Part shown: positions 45,740 through 61,379 of the stretch, piece after piece
How positions within the stretch are numbered: position 1 is the stretch's first letter
How the letters are laid out: every line of letters begins with the position of its first letter
Source of the DNA: Streptococcus hyointestinalis
Lineage (GTDB): Bacteria > Bacillota > Bacilli > Lactobacillales > Streptococcaceae
NCBI RefSeq assembly: GCF_900459405.1
Contig: NZ_UHFN01000007.1
Location: forward strand, 1,612,001 to 1,676,000
Length of the DNA stretch: 64,000 nucleotides
Reading direction: 5' to 3'
Position numbers and translations under genes: made by a program
The notes under the pieces: generated by a model
Databases searched by the model: none
The model's input: only the letters and a program-made list of their open reading frames with translations
What the model was told of the DNA's origin: nothing

Positions 45740-45756
45740 AGACCTTATATTTATAT

Positions 45757-45775
45757 TAGCGGGTAGCTCCCGCTA
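45757..45775 (-). promoter_or_regulatory. Hairpin in the ECF leader
   Basis: TAGCGGG and CCCGCTA form a seven-base-pair stem close to the ECF start. It has no T run, so it is a leader structure rather than a terminator. Confidence 0.55.
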
Positions 45776-45826
45776 GTATAAACCCTTTCTTTAATTATTT
45801 TTTAGATTTGTTTTATACTTAGTTCA

Positions 45827-45963
45827 GCGCTGTGGATTAGTATCTTACACCAATCGCTTTGACGATTTCTAGGAGGCTCTAACCACAGCTCTTTGTTTAA
45901 TTGGTAATGAGAATGATAACGCCCAGACGTTTTATCTCGTGTAAGGATACAAGACAAAGAGTG
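45827..45963 (+). ncRNA. Candidate IS110 bridge RNA, element B
   Basis: The first stem-loop is GCTGTGG (45829-45835)/CCACAGC (45883-45889) with inner stem AATCG/CGATT and two internal-loop strands. The second is CTCTTTGT (45889-45896)/ACAAAGAG (45954-45961) with inner GATAACG/CGTTTTATC. The right strand of the first loop, TAGGAGGC (45870-45877), is perfectly complementary to GCCTCCTA (47301-47308) just outside the element. The donor-loop segment TGAGAATG (45908-45915) resembles the element's own right end, TATAGAATG. Stem pairs covary with element C. Confidence 0.8.
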
Positions 45964-46012
45964 CGTGGAACGAACAACAGTCGCTAATAATCTCGAAAGG
46001 AACCAGAAACTT

Positions 46013-47170
46013 ATGTTTTATGTTGGTATTGATATTGCCAAAAACAAACACGATTTAGCCTGTATCAACGAAACTGGAGAAACAGTGATAACCAACTTCA
46101 GATTTGCCAATTCTTGTCAAGGTTTTCATCAGCTGAAACTAAAGCTAGAACAGCTATCTCCTATCACACAAGATGTCCAGATAGCACTTGAAAGCACAGG
46201 ACACTATAACTACAATATAGTGACCTTTTTAAGAGACTTAGGCTACAATGTATTTGCCTACAACCCGCTCATTATCAAAGAATTTGCTAAATCACAATCG
46301 CTTAGAAAAACTAAAACTGATAGGAAAGATGCCCTTTTAATTGCTCGTAAGCTACGCTCTGACGTAACCCCTGAACGTTATCAAACAGATAGGGTATTAG
46401 ACGAGTTAAAAGAGCTGACACGTTATCAAAATCGCCTAATTCAATCACGATCTAGATGCAAGAATTTATACATCAGATTACTTGATATTATCTTCCCTGA
46501 ACTCCACAGAATCGTTAATAATCTCTATAATCAGTTTATCTATGACTTACTAACAAACTATCCTTCTCCACAAAGAATAGCTCGTGCTCGGTTCTCATCA
46601 TTGCTTAAAATTAAGCGACTAACCGCTGATAAGGCGCATCAGATACAAGAAACAGCCAAACAGACTATTGGTAATGCTTCACCTGTTTTATCCTTGGAGT
46701 TAGTTCAATTAATTGAAAGCATTAAACACTACGATAAGCAAATTAACCAAGTCCAAGAGGAAATTAACCTCTTGATGATTGAGTTGAACTCTCCTATTAC
46801 TTCTATTCCTGGAATTGGAAGTCGTCTTGGTGCTATTATTCTAGCTGAAATTAAGAATATTCATAATTTCAAGAATCCAAATCAGCTCCAGGCCTTTGCA
46901 GGATTAGACCCTGCCATTTACCAATCAGGACAGATGGATAATACCGGTCATATGGTAAAACGAGGCTCCTCTTATCTAAGGTACGCTCTAATACAGGCTG
47001 CTAAGCTTATAGCCATTTATTCCCCACATTTTAAAGCCTATTTAAGACTAAAAATCAGTCAAGGAAAGCATTACAATGTAGCTGTGACACATGTTGCTAA
47101 AAAGCTCATTCGTGTAATTTATCATCTTCTTAAAACCAATCAACTGTTTGATGAAACTAAGCTAAGGTAA
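46013..47170 (+). CDS. IS110-family DEDD recombinase, element B
   Basis: The protein has 385 residues from ATG 46013, the codon that matches the family start (MFYVGIDIAKNKHDLACI); upstream extension would enter the RNA region. Catalytic-domain motifs are ALESTGHYNYNIV near 61 and RKTKTDRKDALLIARKL near 97. The C-terminal Tnp20 domain has ITSIPGIGSRLGAIILAEI near 262 and the serine-bearing VKRGSSYLRYALIQAA near 317. It is clearly related to element C but divergent. Confidence 0.92.
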   Translation: MFYVGIDIAKNKHDLACINETGETVITNFRFANSCQGFHQLKLKLEQLSPITQDVQIALESTGHYNYNIVTFLRDLGYNVFAYNPLIIKEFAKSQSLRKTKTDRKDALLIARKLRSDVTPERYQTDRVLDELKELTRYQNRLIQSRSRCKNLYIRLLDIIFPELHRIVNNLYNQFIYDLLTNYPSPQRIARARFSSLLKIKRLTADKAHQIQETAKQTIGNASPVLSLELVQLIESIKHYDKQINQVQEEINLLMIELNSPITSIPGIGSRLGAIILAEIKNIHNFKNPNQLQAFAGLDPAIYQSGQMDNTGHMVKRGSSYLRYALIQAAKLIAIYSPHFKAYLRLKISQGKHYNVAVTHVAKKLIRVIYHLLKTNQLFDETKLR

Positions 47171-47323
47171 AACTATAAAGTCATGAATCATTTTAAAAAC
47201 TTGCTTTTAGCAGGTCTTTTTCACATGCAATCAATTTTCTAAATAGCTTTTAAAAATAGTTAATATTTTTAAAAATTATTCTTGACTTTTTATATAGAAT
47301 GCCTCCTAAGACTTTTGTCTAAC

Positions 47324-53045: not shown

Positions 53046-53785
53046 TGGCAGAATTAAAAATTGATGTGCAAGATTTACATAAATCTTACGGACAAAACGA
53101 AGTTTTAAAAGGCATTAACGCTAAATTCTACGAAGGCGATGTGGTTTGTATCATCGGACCATCTGGTTCTGGAAAGTCAACCTTCCTTAGAACACTGAAC
53201 CTTCTTGAGACCATCACTAGCGGAAAAGTCACTGTAGACGGCTATGAGCTGTCTGACCCTAAGACAAATCTCGATAAGGCACGTGAAAATATCGGTATGG
53301 TGTTCCAGCACTTCAACCTCTTTCCACACATGTCTGTTCTTGAAAACATCACCTTTGCTCCTGTTGAGCTTGGTAAATACAGCCAAGAAGAAGCCGAAAA
53401 AATCGGTATGGATCTGCTTGAGAAGGTCGGTTTGGCAGACAAGCGTGACGCTAAGCCAGACAGCCTCTCTGGTGGTCAAAAGCAACGTGTGGCTATCGCA
53501 CGTAGTTTAGCTATGAACCCTGATATCATGCTCTTTGACGAGCCAACATCAGCGCTTGACCCAGAAATGGTTGGGGATGTTTTGGAAGTTATGCGTGACC
53601 TTGCTGAGCAAGGCATGACCATGCTGATTGTCACCCACGAGATGGGATTTGCTAGAAAAGTGGCCAACCGTGTTATCTTTACAGACGGTGGACAATTCAT
53701 CGAAGACGGCACCCCTGAGCAAATCTTTGACCATCCAAAACACCCACGTCTACAAGACTTCCTAGACAAGGTCCTAAATGCTTAG
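53045..53785 (+). CDS. glnQ: Glutamine-type ABC transporter ATPase
   Basis: The 246-residue ATPase has Walker [16 protein letters not shown] near 36, signature [17 protein letters not shown] near 139 and Walker [17 protein letters not shown] near 160. Its start overlaps the glnP stop by one base. With the homodimeric GlnP it forms the complete importer. Confidence 0.95.
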
Positions 53786-53789
53786 TGAT

Positions 53790-53814
53790 AACCCTCTATG
53801 AGGGTTATTTTTTT
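53790..53814 (+). terminator. Intrinsic terminator of glnPQ
   Basis: AACCCTC and GAGGGTT with a three-base loop are followed by ATTTTTTT. Confidence 0.9.
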
Positions 53815-53820
53815 ACTAGC

Positions 53821-53849
53821 TTGACAAGGGTCACAAAACATGCTAGACT
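53821..53849 (+). promoter_or_regulatory. Strong sigma-A promoter of the ABC-F leader
   Basis: TTGACA and TAGACT are separated by exactly 17 bases, just after the glnPQ terminator. The transcript would start near 53856. Confidence 0.85.
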
Positions 53850-53881
53850 AAAAGCAATAAAACTCAGGAGGACACGCCATC

Positions 53882-53893
53882 GTGGTAAACTAA
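53882..53893 (+). CDS. Three-codon upstream reading frame (MVN) in the ABC-F leader
   Basis: GTG GTA AAC TAA starts ten bases after a perfect AGGAGG. Such a strong ribosome site for a three-codon frame makes sense only as a sensor of ribosome stalling. The stop overlaps a small hairpin, CTAAAA/TTTTAG. Confidence 0.6.
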   Translation: MVN

Positions 53894-54021
53894 AAACCAA
53901 CTTTTAGAGATTAGTTCTATTGACTTATCATTCAAACTAGTCTTTACCGAGTAGGTTTTTAGTGGTGTCCATAAGTGATGAACAGTGGGTTAACTGTGCT
54001 TTTTGGGGTACCTGTACTATC

Positions 54022-54050
54022 ATCTCTACTTGGTAAAGTCGAGATTTTTT
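54022..54050 (+). terminator. Attenuator terminator of the ABC-F leader
   Basis: A nine-base-pair stem with one mismatch (ATCTC, ACTT/AAGT, GAGAT) ends in six T residues. Its left arm is shared with the antiterminator helix. Confidence 0.75.
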
Positions 54051-54206
54051 GCTTTTTCTAGCTATGCTAGGGAAAGACAAACTATAAGAAAAGTCAATAG
54101 TTTACTTTAAATTTATTTTTGTTTCGATTTTCTTATTTGAGAGTACGACGAAAACACCTTGAAATAACTGAAATTTTTTCAAGGATAAGTATTGTGTTTT
54201 AAGTAT

Positions 54207-55352
54207 TTATCTCACCTTGCTTTCATCAAAGGGAGTATTGTTCTTGAGAAGATGGAACAATACTCGTACCAGCTTTTTAGCGACATGGGCAACAGCGACG
54301 TTATAATGTTTTCCTTGGTCTAACTTGATTCTTAGGTAAGCTTTAAAAGCAGGGGAAAAGCGAGCCACTGATTTTAAAGCTTGTATTAAAGCCCATCGAA
54401 GATGTGGAGACCCACGCTTGACCATTTTACCTTGAGTATCTAGTTGTCCAGATTGGTAGATAGATGGTTCTAACCCTGCAAAAGCTTGAAGTTGGGCTGG
54501 TTTGTCAAAGGTATGGATATTCCTAATTTCCGCTAAAATGATAGATCCAAGACGATTTCCAATTCCAGCCACAGTTGTGATGACCGAGGTGAACTCAGCC
54601 ATCAGCTCATCGACTTTGTTTTCAGCTTTAGAGATGAGTCTTTTGTAATGCTTGATATTTTCAATGATTTCGATGAGTTCGAACTCCCGAGCTTCTGAAG
54701 TTGTTCCGATAGAGTTTGGAGCGACCTTGAGAATATCTTGTATTTTTGGCATTGTTAATCGTTTGATTTCTAGAAGCTTCTCAAATCCAGCCTCACTCAT
54801 TTTCTGAGGGCTGGGATAGTGTGATAGGAGTTCATAGGCGTAGTCAGAATGCTTTCCAATGATTTTATCTATCTCAGGGAAGATGATGTCCAAACACCGA
54901 GTGTATTGTACTTTCCAATCAGACTGCTTCTTCTTGAGACGGTGAATGTGTCTCGTTAGAATTTTCAGTTCTTCTTTTCTATTATCATGACGAAACTGTT
55001 CCCGATTAGGGTCGGATAGTAGCTTAAGGGCAATGGTACGGGCGTCCTTCTTGTCTGTCTTGGTTTTACGAAGTGATAATGACTTGGCGAATTCCTTGAT
55101 GAGTAGAGGGTTGTAGGTATAGACAGTTGCTCCATGTTCATGAAGAAAATCTAAAAGATTAAAGGCATAATGTCCTGTATCTTCAAGTGCGATGAGATAG
55201 TCTTGTTTTAACTGACTGAGGGTATTTATGAACAAGTTAAAACCAGCTCTAGTATTTGAGAAAGTGAGTGGTTTAAGAATAAGTTTTCCTTTGTCGTTTA
55301 AGACAGCTACATCGTGTTTGTTTTTAGCGACATCAATGCCAACGAAAATCAT
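54207..55352 (-). CDS. IS110-family DEDD recombinase, element C
   Basis: The protein has 381 residues from ATG 55352, which has GGAGG seven bases before it. Motifs are MIFVGIDVAKNKHDVAV at the start, ALEDTGHYAFNLL near 55, LRKTKTDKKDARTIALKL near 92, ITTVAGIGNRLGSIILAEIR near 258 and MVKRGSPHLRWALIQALK near 313. It is related to element B through its whole length and more distantly to element A. Confidence 0.92.
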   Translation of the reverse strand: MIFVGIDVAKNKHDVAVLNDKGKLILKPLTFSNTRAGFNLFINTLSQLKQDYLIALEDTGHYAFNLLDFLHEHGATVYTYNPLLIKEFAKSLSLRKTKTDKKDARTIALKLLSDPNREQFRHDNRKEELKILTRHIHRLKKKQSDWKVQYTRCLDIIFPEIDKIIGKHSDYAYELLSHYPSPQKMSEAGFEKLLEIKRLTMPKIQDILKVAPNSIGTTSEAREFELIEIIENIKHYKRLISKAENKVDELMAEFTSVITTVAGIGNRLGSIILAEIRNIHTFDKPAQLQAFAGLEPSIYQSGQLDTQGKMVKRGSPHLRWALIQALKSVARFSPAFKAYLRIKLDQGKHYNVAVAHVAKKLVRVLFHLLKNNTPFDESKVR

Positions 55353-55400
55353 ATGTGTACCTCCATATAGGTTATTCAAGCGCACTTGGTTATCCACGAA

Positions 55401-55540
55401 CTTTTTGTCTTGTTACCTTACACGAGATAAAACGTCGCTGCGTTATCAAACTCATTACCAATTGAAACAAAAAGCTATGGTTAGAGCCTTTCCGAAATCG
55501 TCAAAGCGATTGGAGGGTAGAAACTAATCCACAGTGGCTT
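55401..55540 (-). ncRNA. Candidate IS110 bridge RNA, element C
   Basis: On the minus strand CTGTGG/CCATAG (55529-55534 with 55475-55480) encloses the target loop. CTTTTTGT/ACAAAAAG (55467-55474 with 55401-55408) encloses the donor loop. Against element B the third pair of the donor stem changes from C-G to T-A, so pairing is kept. Target-loop strand TACCCTCC (plus 55512-55519) is identical to the left flank at 55598-55605. GGAAAGGC (plus 55486-55493) pairs with the right flank GTCTTTCC (plus 54071-54078) with one G-T wobble. Confidence 0.85.
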
Positions 55541-55563
55541 TTTCAAAGTATAACACTTGGGCT

Positions 55564-55593
55564 TTGGCAGTAGCTAACTGCACTAAATATAAT
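55564..55593 (+). promoter_or_regulatory. Outward promoter at the IS110 C left end, reading into ABC-F
   Basis: TTGGCA (55564-55569) and TATAAT (55588-55593) are 18 bases apart and point toward the ABC-F gene 14 bases away. Transcription would start near 55600, inside the remaining GGAGGG. Confidence 0.6.
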
Positions 55594-55606
55594 ATAAGGA
55601 GGGTAT

Positions 55607-57115
55607 ATGCTGACCTTTGAACATTTGACCATTACACACAAAAAAGACAACGCGGTCCTTATCAATGACCTGACAATGACTATAAACGCCTGCGATAAAG
55701 TCGCTATCATCGGTGAGGAGGGCTGCGGCAAATCAACACTTCTCTCCTTTATGAGAGAGGAGAGCGCTATTAGTAGCTATGCTGAGGTTTCTGGGATTTG
55801 CCGTAGAAACTACAGGCGTGTTGCCTATCTGCCGCCGTTTATCGACCCAACGCTTCTAACACTTTCTATTTCTGACTTTATTGATAGGAGTATTGACTAT
55901 ACGGCATTTGACTACGGGCTTTTTTATCAGCTAGCGCATGAGCTTGGTTTTGACAGTAAACGCTTTGAGGATGAGAGTCCTCTAGCTGTTCTTTCTGGCG
56001 GGGAAAAGTTTAAGCTGCAGTTGCTACTTCTACTAGCTCATGAGCCAGATTGTCTCTTACTTGATGAGCCGACCAGTGACTTAGACTTTGAGACGATTAC
56101 GTGGCTGATAGGCTTCATCCAAAAGAGCATGCTAACGATTATCTTTGTTTCGCATGATGATTACTTTTTAAGCCAAACAGCGACTCGTATCATTCACCTC
56201 GAGCAGGTCAAAAAACGCCGTGAAAGCAAGACCCACACAAGTAAAATGGGCTATAAGGACTATCTAGACAACCGCAAGAAAAATTTTCACCATCAAGAGC
56301 GACTAGCGACTGAGCAAGAGCGCCAATACCAAAAAGATATGACAAAGCTGAACCGCACCATGTCTGCTGTCCACCATGCACTCAATACCACAAAAGACAG
56401 CACTGCTGGGCGTCTTTTGGCAAAGAAGATGAAAAATCTCAAATCACGCCAAAAACGCCTTGAGCGTGAAAAAGACGATTTCTATGACAAGCCTGCTTCT
56501 ACTGAAGCGATTGAGCTCGTTTTTTCCGCCGTAGAGCCTCTGCCTAAAACCAAACAACTCCTCTCCTATGACCAGCACAAGCTGTCTAGCGGACAAGTGA
56601 TTGATTTACACATTTGGGGGCAGGATAAGATTGTCATCACAGGCAAAAACGGTATTGGAAAGACTTTGCTTTTAAAAGACATCAGAAACCAGCTAACGCA
56701 AAAGGGTTATACGGTCAGCTACATGCCCCAAGACTACCTTGAAGAACTGGATGAAAATAAAACAGCACTTGATTTCCTAGAAAGAACACGACGTAGGGCT
56801 GAGGCACGCACGCTCCTTGCCAAGCTCCAATTTACCCCGCAGGAAATCCAGCACCCCATCTCAAATCTGTCTAGCGGGCAAAAGGCAAAGCTCTTTTTCT
56901 GCCGTATGGTTTTGGATGAAGCGCAAATCCTGCTCTTGGACGAGCCAACACGACACCTCTCACCCCTTTCTCAGCCAGAAATTCGCCAACTCTTTAGAAA
57001 TTACACAGGCTGTATCATCGCTGTCTCGCATGATTACCATTTTATCCATGAAGTGGGAGATAGCATTTATCAACTGACACAAAACGAGCTGACTTTACTA
57101 GCAGGCAAGCCGTAA
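55607..57115 (+). CDS. ABC-F ATPase, probable ribosome-protection type resistance factor
   Basis: The 502-residue protein has two ABC domains and no membrane segment. Domain 1 has Walker A GEEGCGKST near 38, LSGGEKFKLQL near 128 and LLLDEPTSDLDFET near 149. A charged linker (about 200-300, rich in Lys, Arg and Gln) follows, the part that reaches into the ribosome in this family. Domain 2 has GKNGIGKTLLL near 347, NLSSGQKAKLFF near 423 and LLLDEPTRHLSPL near 443. The attenuator leader found upstream is of the type used by antibiotic-responsive ABC-F genes. Which drug class is protected against is unknown, and a housekeeping role cannot be excluded. Confidence 0.88.
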   Translation: MLTFEHLTITHKKDNAVLINDLTMTINACDKVAIIGEEGCGKSTLLSFMREESAISSYAEVSGICRRNYRRVAYLPPFIDPTLLTLSISDFIDRSIDYTAFDYGLFYQLAHELGFDSKRFEDESPLAVLSGGEKFKLQLLLLLAHEPDCLLLDEPTSDLDFETITWLIGFIQKSMLTIIFVSHDDYFLSQTATRIIHLEQVKKRRESKTHTSKMGYKDYLDNRKKNFHHQERLATEQERQYQKDMTKLNRTMSAVHHALNTTKDSTAGRLLAKKMKNLKSRQKRLEREKDDFYDKPASTEAIELVFSAVEPLPKTKQLLSYDQHKLSSGQVIDLHIWGQDKIVITGKNGIGKTLLLKDIRNQLTQKGYTVSYMPQDYLEELDENKTALDFLERTRRRAEARTLLAKLQFTPQEIQHPISNLSSGQKAKLFFCRMVLDEAQILLLDEPTRHLSPLSQPEIRQLFRNYTGCIIAVSHDYHFIHEVGDSIYQLTQNELTLLAGKP

Positions 57116-59968: not shown

Positions 59969-61379
59969 GGCTCTATAATATCTGTAGTGGGTAACGCCAC
60001 CTCAGAGGTTATAGGGCTTTTTATCTGTATGAAAAAAGTCCCATAAGACTTATAATGAAAAGCAACCACACCATCATTAGGAAGTACTTATGGAACATAT
60101 TAAGAATAGCACAAAACTCATTGGAATCAAAGACTTAAACATCAAAATATCAATTGTTCTCAAACATCAGACTCGCATCGAGATAAGAGCCGAGCTGGAT
60201 TACCCCGCTCCAGCCTGTCCGCATTGTCAGGGAAAGATGATCAAATACGATTTTCAAAGACCTTCCACCATCCCAATCTTAGACGTCCAAGGTATGGCAA
60301 CTGTCCTAAAGCTCAGGAAGCGACGCTTTCAATGTAAAGTGTGTCGCAGGGTTTCTGTCGCCAAAACTAGTCTGGTCAAGAAAAATTGCCAAATCTCACA
60401 GCCTGTCTGGGCGAAAATCACCCAACTTCTCATCGAGAAACAGACCAACACGGACATCGCAAAACACCTCCACGTCTCTGTTTCTACCGTTCAAAGACAG
60501 CTAAATGCTTTCTCTTTGAAAGAGAATTTTGAGACTTTGCCAGAGATTTTATCATGGGATGAATTCGCAAGAAACAAGGGAAAGTTGGCTTTCATTGCGC
60601 AAGATTTTAAGACCAAGAAAATCATTGCTCTTCTTGAAAACAATCGCCAAACGACCATCAAAAACCACTTTTACAAGTATTCTAGACAGGCTAGGGAGAA
60701 GGTCAGAGTGGTCACAGTAGACATGTCGGGAGCCTACATTCCTATCATTGGGAAACTATTTCCAAAGGCTCAAATCGTCCTTGACCGTTTCCACATCGTG
60801 CAGCACCTTAGTCGAGCCATGATGACCACTCGCATTGCCATCATGAAGGCATTTGACAAGACGTCTCTGCCTTACAGAGCCATGAAAAATCACTGGAAAA
60901 TCCTGCAAAAAGACAGCAGAAAGCTCTCCGACAAGGCTTTCTACTCCAGAACCTTTCGACAAACTCTGACACCTAGAGAAATTGTCCAGAAAACCTTGGA
61001 TTTTTCGCCTGAGTTACGCTATTACTATGAACTTTACCAGCTACTGCTCTTTCATTTTCAAGAGAAGCGTGTTAAGGCTTTCTTTGGACTCATTCACGAC
61101 AATTTGGGTACTGTCAACGCAAGTTTTTCAAGAGTTTTTCGGACTTTTCTAAAGCACGAAACTTATATTACCAACGCTCTGAAGCAACCTTATTCCAATG
61201 CCAAACTGGAAGCCACTAACAAGCTTATCAAAGACATCAAACGGCAAGCGTTTGGATTTCGTAACTTTAAGAACTTTAGAACCAAGATTCTCATCACTCT
61301 GAACATACAAAGAGAGAGAACGAAAATCGTTCTCTCTCGCACATAGCTTTTCATCACCCACTACAGTTGACAAAGAGCC
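59969..61379 (+). mobile_element. ISL3-family element copy B (intact)
   Basis: The 1411-base unit has terminal inverted repeats GGCTCTATAATATCTGTAGT and GGCTCTTTGTCAACTGTAGT and a perfect 8-base duplication TGTTATTT (59961-59968 and 61380-61387). It serves as the reference that shows where copy A was interrupted. Confidence 0.95.
60090..61346 (+). CDS. ISL3-family transposase, copy B
   Basis: The 418-residue protein differs from copy A in about a dozen residues (for example ARRLHVS to AKHLHVS and AFTFKDN to AFSLKEN). The zinc-finger cysteines, helix-turn-helix and DDE motifs are all kept. Confidence 0.94.
   Translation: MEHIKNSTKLIGIKDLNIKISIVLKHQTRIEIRAELDYPAPACPHCQGKMIKYDFQRPSTIPILDVQGMATVLKLRKRRFQCKVCRRVSVAKTSLVKKNCQISQPVWAKITQLLIEKQTNTDIAKHLHVSVSTVQRQLNAFSLKENFETLPEILSWDEFARNKGKLAFIAQDFKTKKIIALLENNRQTTIKNHFYKYSRQAREKVRVVTVDMSGAYIPIIGKLFPKAQIVLDRFHIVQHLSRAMMTTRIAIMKAFDKTSLPYRAMKNHWKILQKDSRKLSDKAFYSRTFRQTLTPREIVQKTLDFSPELRYYYELYQLLLFHFQEKRVKAFFGLIHDNLGTVNASFSRVFRTFLKHETYITNALKQPYSNAKLEATNKLIKDIKRQAFGFRNFKNFRTKILITLNIQRERTKIVLSRT

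What the first reader, a model, noticed from the sequence alone, without database searches (positions are those of the whole stretch)
53821..55620. Antibiotic-type attenuator leader severed from its ABC-F gene by a precise IS110 insertion
Seen: a strong promoter, AGGAGG, a three-codon frame GTG GTA AAC TAA, an antiterminator pairing (53942-53954 with 54026-54038) and a terminator (54022-54050) that cannot form together. Then IS110 element C, then GGAGGGTAT and the ABC-F ATG. Taking out the element restores GGAAAGACAAGGAGGGTAT before the ATG, so the leader belonged to this gene. Known: leaders with tiny reading frames and terminators control ABC-F resistance genes such as Listeria lmo0919 and Bacillus vmlR. 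Inference: this strain has lost drug-responsive induction and now either silences the gene or expresses it constitutively. The leader itself does not match any RNA family I can name.
Basis: partly seen in the sequence, partly recalled or inferred. Interest (0 to 1): 0.9.

Follow-up and report, generated by a model that had tools for sequence, protein, structure and literature searches.

The report
Drug-sensing gene leader displaced by RNA-guided transposon
A streptococcal RNA switch that probably senses ribosome-blocking drugs, and sits in front of a likely ribosome-protection gene, has been pushed 1.5 kb away from that gene by a mobile element whose guide sequence matches this very site; the switch itself looks intact, and whether it still controls the gene is open.

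Summary
Observation confirmed. At 53821-54050 lie a promoter, a Shine-Dalgarno (SD) sequence, the frame GTG GTA AAC TAA, a hairpin around it, and an antiterminator that shares bases with a terminator. A covariance model built from 25 relatives without the window finds this leader (E 5.7e-9). A tiny upstream frame (3-9 codons) precedes the orthologous ABC-F gene in 107 of 109 other stretches read; the other two reach a contig end. Antiterminator and terminator covary. The design is that of the Bacillus vmlR attenuator; no Rfam family matches. The IS110 element (54080-55596) lies between terminator and SD. Its candidate guides match this site at 16 of 17 positions, and guides and targets change together among the elements scored, so RNA-guided targeting of an SD-like site explains the insertion. 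The claimed loss of induction is not shown: the gene keeps its SD and frame, the genome shows no Rho over cut-off, and the element has no canonical terminator on that strand, so drug-induced read-through could still reach the gene. New member of a known kind, instructively rearranged.

The parts
53821..53849 (+). promoter TTGACA-17-TAGACT with TG before the -10
   Evidence: 10 of 12; sequence
53866..53871 (+). AGGAGG, Shine-Dalgarno of the tiny upstream frame
   Evidence: sequence; GGAGG in relatives
53882..53893 (+). three-codon upstream frame GTG GTA AAC TAA (Met-Val-Asn)
   Evidence: relatives carry MNN, MKN, MIN, MIH, MRN, MDN, MLN and others
53870..53970 (+). anti-antiterminator hairpin (SL-1): 53870-53875 with 53965-53970 and 53889-53898 with 53954-53963, enclosing the upstream frame and an apical helix
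   Evidence: folding (transcripts of 120-200 nt); pair counts in relatives
53942..53955 (+). antiterminator 5' arm, pairs with 54025-54038
   Evidence: covariation in relatives
54022..54050 (+). intrinsic terminator (24-nt hairpin with one T.C mismatch, then T run)
   Evidence: covariation in relatives
54071..54079 (+). left flank of the insertion, GGAAAGACA
54080..55596 (-). IS110-family element, 1517 nt, one of nine full copies in the genome
54210..55352 (-). IS110 transposase, 381 aa
   Evidence: NF033542 222.7 bits over its cut-off; PF01548 and PF02371
55512..55520 (-). candidate left target guide CTACCCTCC in the non-coding region upstream of the transposase
55486..55493 (-). candidate right target guide GGAAAGGC
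55564..55593 (+). outward promoter-like site TTGGCA-18-TATAAT at the element end; a start 6-9 nt downstream would fall within the SD
   Evidence: 11 of 12; function not tested
55597..55606 (+). AGGAGGGTAT, ribosome-binding site of the ABC-F gene and right flank of the insertion
55607..57115 (+). ABC-F ATPase gene, 502 aa, open frame

Best explanation
53821-54050 is a transcription attenuator of the vmlR kind. Shown by sequence and comparison: a tiny upstream frame lies inside a hairpin (SL-1); the antiterminator arm lies in that hairpin; the arm's partner is the 5' half of the terminator. Inferred: without drug SL-1 forms and transcription stops at about 54050; when a drug holds a ribosome at the start of the frame, the base of SL-1 cannot form, the antiterminator pairs and RNA polymerase runs on. 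Shown: an IS110 element sits between terminator and gene. Inferred from guide-target matching: its bridge RNA chose the site because it fits its SD-like target. My reading of the consequence: the gene keeps its own SD, and in a host without Rho drug-induced read-through can still reach it as a longer RNA antisense to the transposase, so control is weakened rather than cut. I put the attenuator at 0.93, RNA-guided insertion at 0.9, and retained inducibility at only about 0.45.
For: Model R1 (25 relatives, window excluded) hits 53861-54054 at 54.2 bits, E 5.7e-9, best of five in the genome. Tiny frame by pattern in 106 of 110 stretches, window included; the same patterns give 0 of 110 on the reverse strand and on average 0.05 of 110 in 20 shuffles (the patterns were partly shaped on these sequences). 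Of the four without, L021 has it farther upstream, L076 has nine codons, L124 and L144 reach a contig end. Antiterminator in A1: 89.7% of cells paired against 78.8% shuffled and 26 cells changed on both sides against 9.1 (0 of 500 shuffles each); 7 of 10 pairs changed on both sides (6 of 500). SL-1 plus terminator: 83.7% against 74.9%, 51 cells against 19.8 (0 of 500 each); 13 of 24 pairs (17 of 500); slid controls are lower on cells and score. Blocking the RNA to 16 nt past the start: window terminator probability 0.95 to 0.003, equal block elsewhere 0.97; of 75 distinct relatives 36 drop by more than 0.2, 25 cross 0.5; of all 89 none rises by more than 0.2, and the control block moves none by more than 0.2. 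Guides match the site 16 of 17, background maximum 14 (1 of 127,920 window positions); every target set is best matched by its own guides, 5 of 5. Rho: best 40 bits against a cut-off of 509. No canonical + strand terminator in the element. vmlR: passages of PMC9226507.
Against: No RNA data. The window terminator is weak. 39 of 75 relatives do not drop by more than 0.2 in the equilibrium folding test. In one search some leaders give no antiterminator signal against shuffles (for example L085, L097, L101, L130), and the median rank of own among cross pairings is 0.18, not 0. SL-1 lower helix is 73.1% paired in A1, four of its seven pairs are not standard where the window is aligned to the model, and in the window's longest folds (210-223 nt) it gives way to other pairings. 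No conspecific allele without the element was found. The element's + strand has long imperfect hairpins before weak T stretches, which might terminate. The guides were recognised by eye with the target in view.
Confidence: 0.75

Rival explanations
1. Control is lost and the gene is silent: read-through RNA stops or decays inside the element, and nothing at the element end drives the gene.
For: 1.5 kb of untranslated antisense RNA; convergent transposase transcription (inference); imperfect hairpins before weak T stretches on the + strand.
Against: No canonical + strand terminator; no Rho over cut-off. The gene's frame is open, but the insertion looks recent (0-6 mismatches to the window copy in the seven other copies of equal length), so that says little.
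Confidence: 0.28
2. The gene is now constitutive from the outward promoter-like site at the element end.
For: TTGGCA-18-TATAAT, 11 of 12, is the best-scoring promoter-like site of the stretch.
Against: A start 6-9 nt after TATAAT would lie within AGGAGG, a few bases before the ATG, giving an RNA with a cut SD; the number of promoter-like sites in the stretch (7 against 4.3, sd 2.3) is near chance; the TATAAT may be the mirror of a circle-junction promoter (inference).
Confidence: 0.22
3. The leader is unrelated to the ABC-F gene and serves as a stand-alone small RNA or belongs to the glnQ end.
For: It now stands 1.5 kb from the gene; glnQ ends just upstream, with its own terminator.
Against: Same architecture in front of the ortholog in the relatives read; covariance model hit.
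Confidence: 0.03

Closest known systems
Bacillus subtilis vmlR leader (PMC9226507, passages seen)
   Same: Three-codon upstream frame (MIN; MDN and MDK work as well, MRK less) inside an anti-antiterminator hairpin, mutually exclusive antiterminator and terminator, ABC-F gene downstream.
   Different: Frame here is Met-Val-Asn with a GTG start; no sequence comparison with vmlR was made; no test here for an SD-sequestering hairpin; an IS110 element lies between leader and gene.
cplR, vmlR2 and lsaA leaders (PMC10201436, passages seen)
   Same: Very short upstream frames (MR[I/M], MK[L/Q], MAGN) before ABC-F resistance genes.
   Different: Different frame consensus and hosts; the word Streptococc- does not occur in that main text.
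Listeria lmo0919 leader
   Same: Attenuator in front of an ABC-F gene.
   Different: No sequence comparison was made here.
IS621 and other IS110 elements with bridge RNA (PMC11208160, passages) or seekRNA (PMC11187229, passages)
   Same: Non-coding region upstream of the transposase; left guide equals the left target, right guide is complementary to the right target, in that order; no target duplication.
   Different: Targets are Shine-Dalgarno-like AGGAG sequences; donor loop not identified here; no activity shown.

Membership tests
vmlR-type attenuator with tiny upstream frame | promoter, SD and a frame of about three codons upstream of an ABC-F gene | tested here: met
   in the window the gene is 1.5 kb away
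vmlR-type attenuator with tiny upstream frame | frame lies in an anti-antiterminator hairpin | tested here: met
   lower helix only 73.1% of cells paired, and lost in the window's longest folds
vmlR-type attenuator with tiny upstream frame | mutually exclusive antiterminator and intrinsic terminator | tested here: met
   the two helices share alignment columns 230-231 and 239-240
vmlR-type attenuator with tiny upstream frame | ribosome on the frame shifts the balance from terminator to antiterminator | tested here: inconclusive
   folding only: clear for the window, 36 of 75 distinct relatives
vmlR-type attenuator with tiny upstream frame | drug-induced stalling and read-through | not testable with these tools
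   needs RNA or reporter data
Rfam RNA families | match at gathering score | tested here: not met
curated ABC-F ribosomal protection families (NCBIfam) | score over the curated cut-off | tested here: not met
   NF000355 291.5 against 380; Sal 209.6 against 725; CplR 197.9 against 780 (best 25 of 192 families shown)
curated ABC-F ribosomal protection families (NCBIfam) | drug resistance conferred | not testable with these tools
   no phenotype data
IS110 insertion sequences | DEDD transposase with Transposase_20 domain | tested here: met
IS110 insertion sequences | guide sequences in the upstream non-coding region match the target | tested here: met
   register set by eye
IS110 insertion sequences | donor-binding loop and RNA-guided recombination | not tested
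   donor loop not analysed; activity needs experiment

The most novel reading that the evidence does not exclude
A clade of streptococcal IS110 elements carries guide RNAs programmed to the Shine-Dalgarno motif, an address found in front of very many genes, so that each hop tends to land at a ribosome-binding site and swaps the upstream region of a gene while leaving a start site usable. At this locus the result is a composite: a drug-sensing attenuator now drives, through read-through, a long RNA that is antisense to the element's transposase and guide before it reaches the ABC-F gene, tying antibiotic stress both to the gene and to the element's own control.
Probability: 0.15. Interest if true: 0.65.

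Novelty: new member of a known kind. Interest (0 to 1): 0.5.

Why it matters
It gives a covariation-supported attenuator family in front of a little-studied ABC-F gene in what appears to be the genus Streptococcus (107 of 109 other stretches read), not in Rfam and not met in the paper listings and passages seen here. It also shows guide and target of IS110 elements changing together in natural copies, with Shine-Dalgarno-like addresses, and offers a natural test of whether an attenuator can still control a gene across 1.5 kb in a host without Rho.

Tried and rejected
Rfam by gathering score and by E-value: nothing relevant. A conspecific allele without the element: by DNA the whole leader was found only in the genome itself, among 59 genomes (own included; one other, 31 nt) and among 284 genus genomes (own included; three others, 60, 29 and 24 nt). 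The protein scan of genome contigs gave two remote proteins, 31% and 25% identical, and may leave out the window's own genome. Other hits of model R1 in the genome (32 bits on C2 and on C4, 21.7 bits twice on C7): the C2 stretch was read and shows no leader of this kind; the other three were not examined. RNAalifold alone recovered only the terminator from A1; SL-1 and antiterminator were tested by naming the pairs.

Rows dropped and limits: upstream stretches cover 109 of 284 genomes, own included (110 stretches; G298 twice, as L014 and L141), chosen down the list of best protein matches. Terminators were accepted for 91 of 106 leaders (cut-off -7 kcal/mol, at most 36 nt); of the 15 without, six gave no hairpin, six a weak one and three a 44-nt one. 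rest on the 91; one search also leaves out L130. For A1, 25 of 30 candidates were used; L082, L085, L122, L130 and L132 were left out by my choice. In one search, 6 of 9 family C and 5 of 8 family B insertions have a start codon with at least 50 codons behind the SD-like site, against 30 of 96 AGGAG in the window: suggestive only (L062 of family B is truncated). One search gave guides for 9 of 14 loci of other genomes; only L153-L155 were scored, with 9 family C and 7 family B copies; L166 and L170 fit their flanks poorly by eye, the rest were not compared, and the two family D copies were not scored. In one search the register was set by eye, one base different for family B on the right side; read by guides instead of by targets, 4 of 5 are best on their own targets and one (L154) ties with L155. 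The pattern fits 7 of the 9 occupied sites, and its backward control is also 0, so its zero says little.
Full report
What is there. The window lies in a 2.55-Mb genome, most likely a Streptococcus (inferred from the Rfam hit Srn266, and gene content; no name is shown). glnQ ends at 53785 and is closed by its own terminator at 53787-53809. Then come a promoter (53821-53849), AGGAGG (53866), GTG GTA AAC TAA (53882-53893), a long hairpin (53870-53970) and a terminator (54022-54050). The antiterminator pairs 53942-53955 with 54025-54038; it uses the 5' half of the terminator, so the two exclude each other. A 14-pair run is reached in 4 of 5000 shuffles. A 1517-nt IS110 element follows (54080-55596), then AGGAGGGTAT and the ATG of a 502-aa ABC-F protein.

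The leader belongs to the gene. I read 110 upstream stretches of the orthologous gene from 109 of 284 genus genomes, the window included (listed protein matches are about 42-54% identical). A tiny frame behind an SD is found by pattern in 106; the same patterns find 0 of 110 on the reverse strand and 0.05 of 110 on average in 20 shuffles, though they were partly shaped on these sequences. The frames are MNN 49, MKN 19, MIN 5, MYKKSIA 5, MDNNK 5, MIH 4, MDSNK 4, MRN 3, MDN 2, MNK 2, and one each of MYI, MKI, MIK, MLN, MVN (the window), MDK, MDNKK and MDTDK. Of the four left, L021 has MKN farther upstream, L076 a nine-codon frame, and L124 and L144 reach a contig end. glnQ-like coding sequence is visible upstream in several (L010-L012, L032, L036, L037, by eye), as in the window.

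Covariation. In A1 (25 leaders, window excluded) the antiterminator has 7 of 10 pairs changed on both sides (6 of 500 shuffles reach that), 26 such cells against 9.1 and 89.7% of cells paired against 78.8% (0 of 500 each). The terminator helix is 94.7% paired with 7 of 9 pairs changed on both sides; the SL-1 helices are weaker, 73.1% and 80.5%. A covariance model from A1 finds 53861-54054 at E 5.7e-9, the next window hit having E 0.16; in the genome it is the best of five. Duplex energies are better within than between leaders on average (-12.8 against -10.2 kcal/mol, 80 distinct), median rank 0.18, and a minority of leaders show no signal.

How it most likely works. In the vmlR leader a three-codon frame (MIN) sits in an anti-antiterminator hairpin, and a ribosome stalled by a drug such as lincomycin lets the antiterminator form (PMC9226507, passages). 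The same parts are here. Blocking the RNA to 16 nt past the start codon, as a stalled ribosome would, lowers the predicted terminator from 0.95 to 0.003 in the window, while an equal block elsewhere leaves 0.97. In 75 distinct relatives 36 fall by more than 0.2 and 25 cross 0.5; among all 89 none rises by more than 0.2, and the control block changes none by more than 0.2; 39 of the 75 do not respond by that measure. This is equilibrium folding, not a measurement, and in the window's longest folds the lower SL-1 helix gives way to other pairings. Which drugs act is inferred from vmlR. The protein is below the cut-off of the families shown, nearest to the general ribosomal-protection model (291.5 against 380 bits), and its best match among solved structures is an entry named ExpZ (8buu, 170 bits); resistance is therefore an inference.

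The element. Nine full copies lie in the genome; seven of the eight others have equal length and 0-6 mismatches to the window copy, the eighth is one base shorter, so the insertion looks recent. All nine have AAGACA directly on one side and AGGAG on the other. The non-coding region upstream of the transposase holds CTACCCTCC and GGAAAGGC around a small hairpin, in the order described for IS110 bridge RNAs (PMC11208160, passages). The window site fits 8 of 9 and 8 of 8 (G.U counted on the right); the nine copies fit 11 to 17 of 17; of 127,920 background positions in the window one reaches 14 and none more. A second family in this genome has TCTTACACC (or TCTTCCACC) and TAGGAGGC with matching flanks, and three elements of other genomes have yet other guides; each of the five target sets is best matched by its own guides, while by guides 4 of 5 are best on their own targets and one ties. 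Paper searches on IS110 with SD or ribosome binding site listed none that reports it, judged from titles and abstract starts; the term Shine does not occur in the main text of the two IS110 papers.

What follows for the gene. The insertion leaves SD, spacing and ATG in place. There is no Rho match over cut-off (best 40 bits against 509; in 14 control genomes the search rings in 12, over cut-off in 8). No canonical terminator lies on the + strand of the element: one scan lists a marginal 7-pair site at 55038-55058, with 1.1 sites expected by chance in the whole scanned stretch, and a looser scan lists long imperfect hairpins with weak T stretches. Read-through from the leader could thus still reach the gene. 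The outward site TTGGCA-18-TATAAT (11 of 12) would start RNA within the SD. I cannot decide between retained control (0.45), silence (0.28) and constitutive expression (0.22).

Novelty. The leader is a new member of the known class of tiny-frame attenuators of ABC-F genes; no streptococcal family of this kind was met in the searches made (listings and selected passages only). The displacement by a guided element is a natural experiment rather than a new mechanism.

Noticed in passing
window about 45742-47309 (-), loci L058-L065: A second IS110 family, eight copies (one truncated), with guides TCTTACACC or TCTTCCACC and TAGGAGGC that match its flanks; it lies between a TAGGAG-like sequence and a start codon in most copies, so it too has a Shine-Dalgarno-like address.
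   Followed up: partly
L056, L057: A third IS110 family (two copies) with AAGGAGG in the candidate right guide.
   Followed up: no
L016, L018, L020, L021, L023, L025, L027, L033, between terminator and ABC-F start: By eye, a small basic ORF of about 50 codons ending in GNR lies between the attenuator and the ABC-F gene in these relatives and would be co-induced; the window flanks have no room for it.
   Followed up: no
L021 upstream of the ABC-F gene: By eye, direct repeats of about 85-90 nt lie between the terminator and the small ORF, another displacement of the same leader.
   Followed up: no
L174 and L175 (G000 contigs C2 and C4): Two 32-bit hits of the leader model; the C2 stretch, which was read, holds hairpin and terminator-like units of unknown function.
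   Followed up: partly
window 59969-60078 (-): Rfam Srn266, a streptococcal small RNA, 81.4 bits.
   Followed up: no
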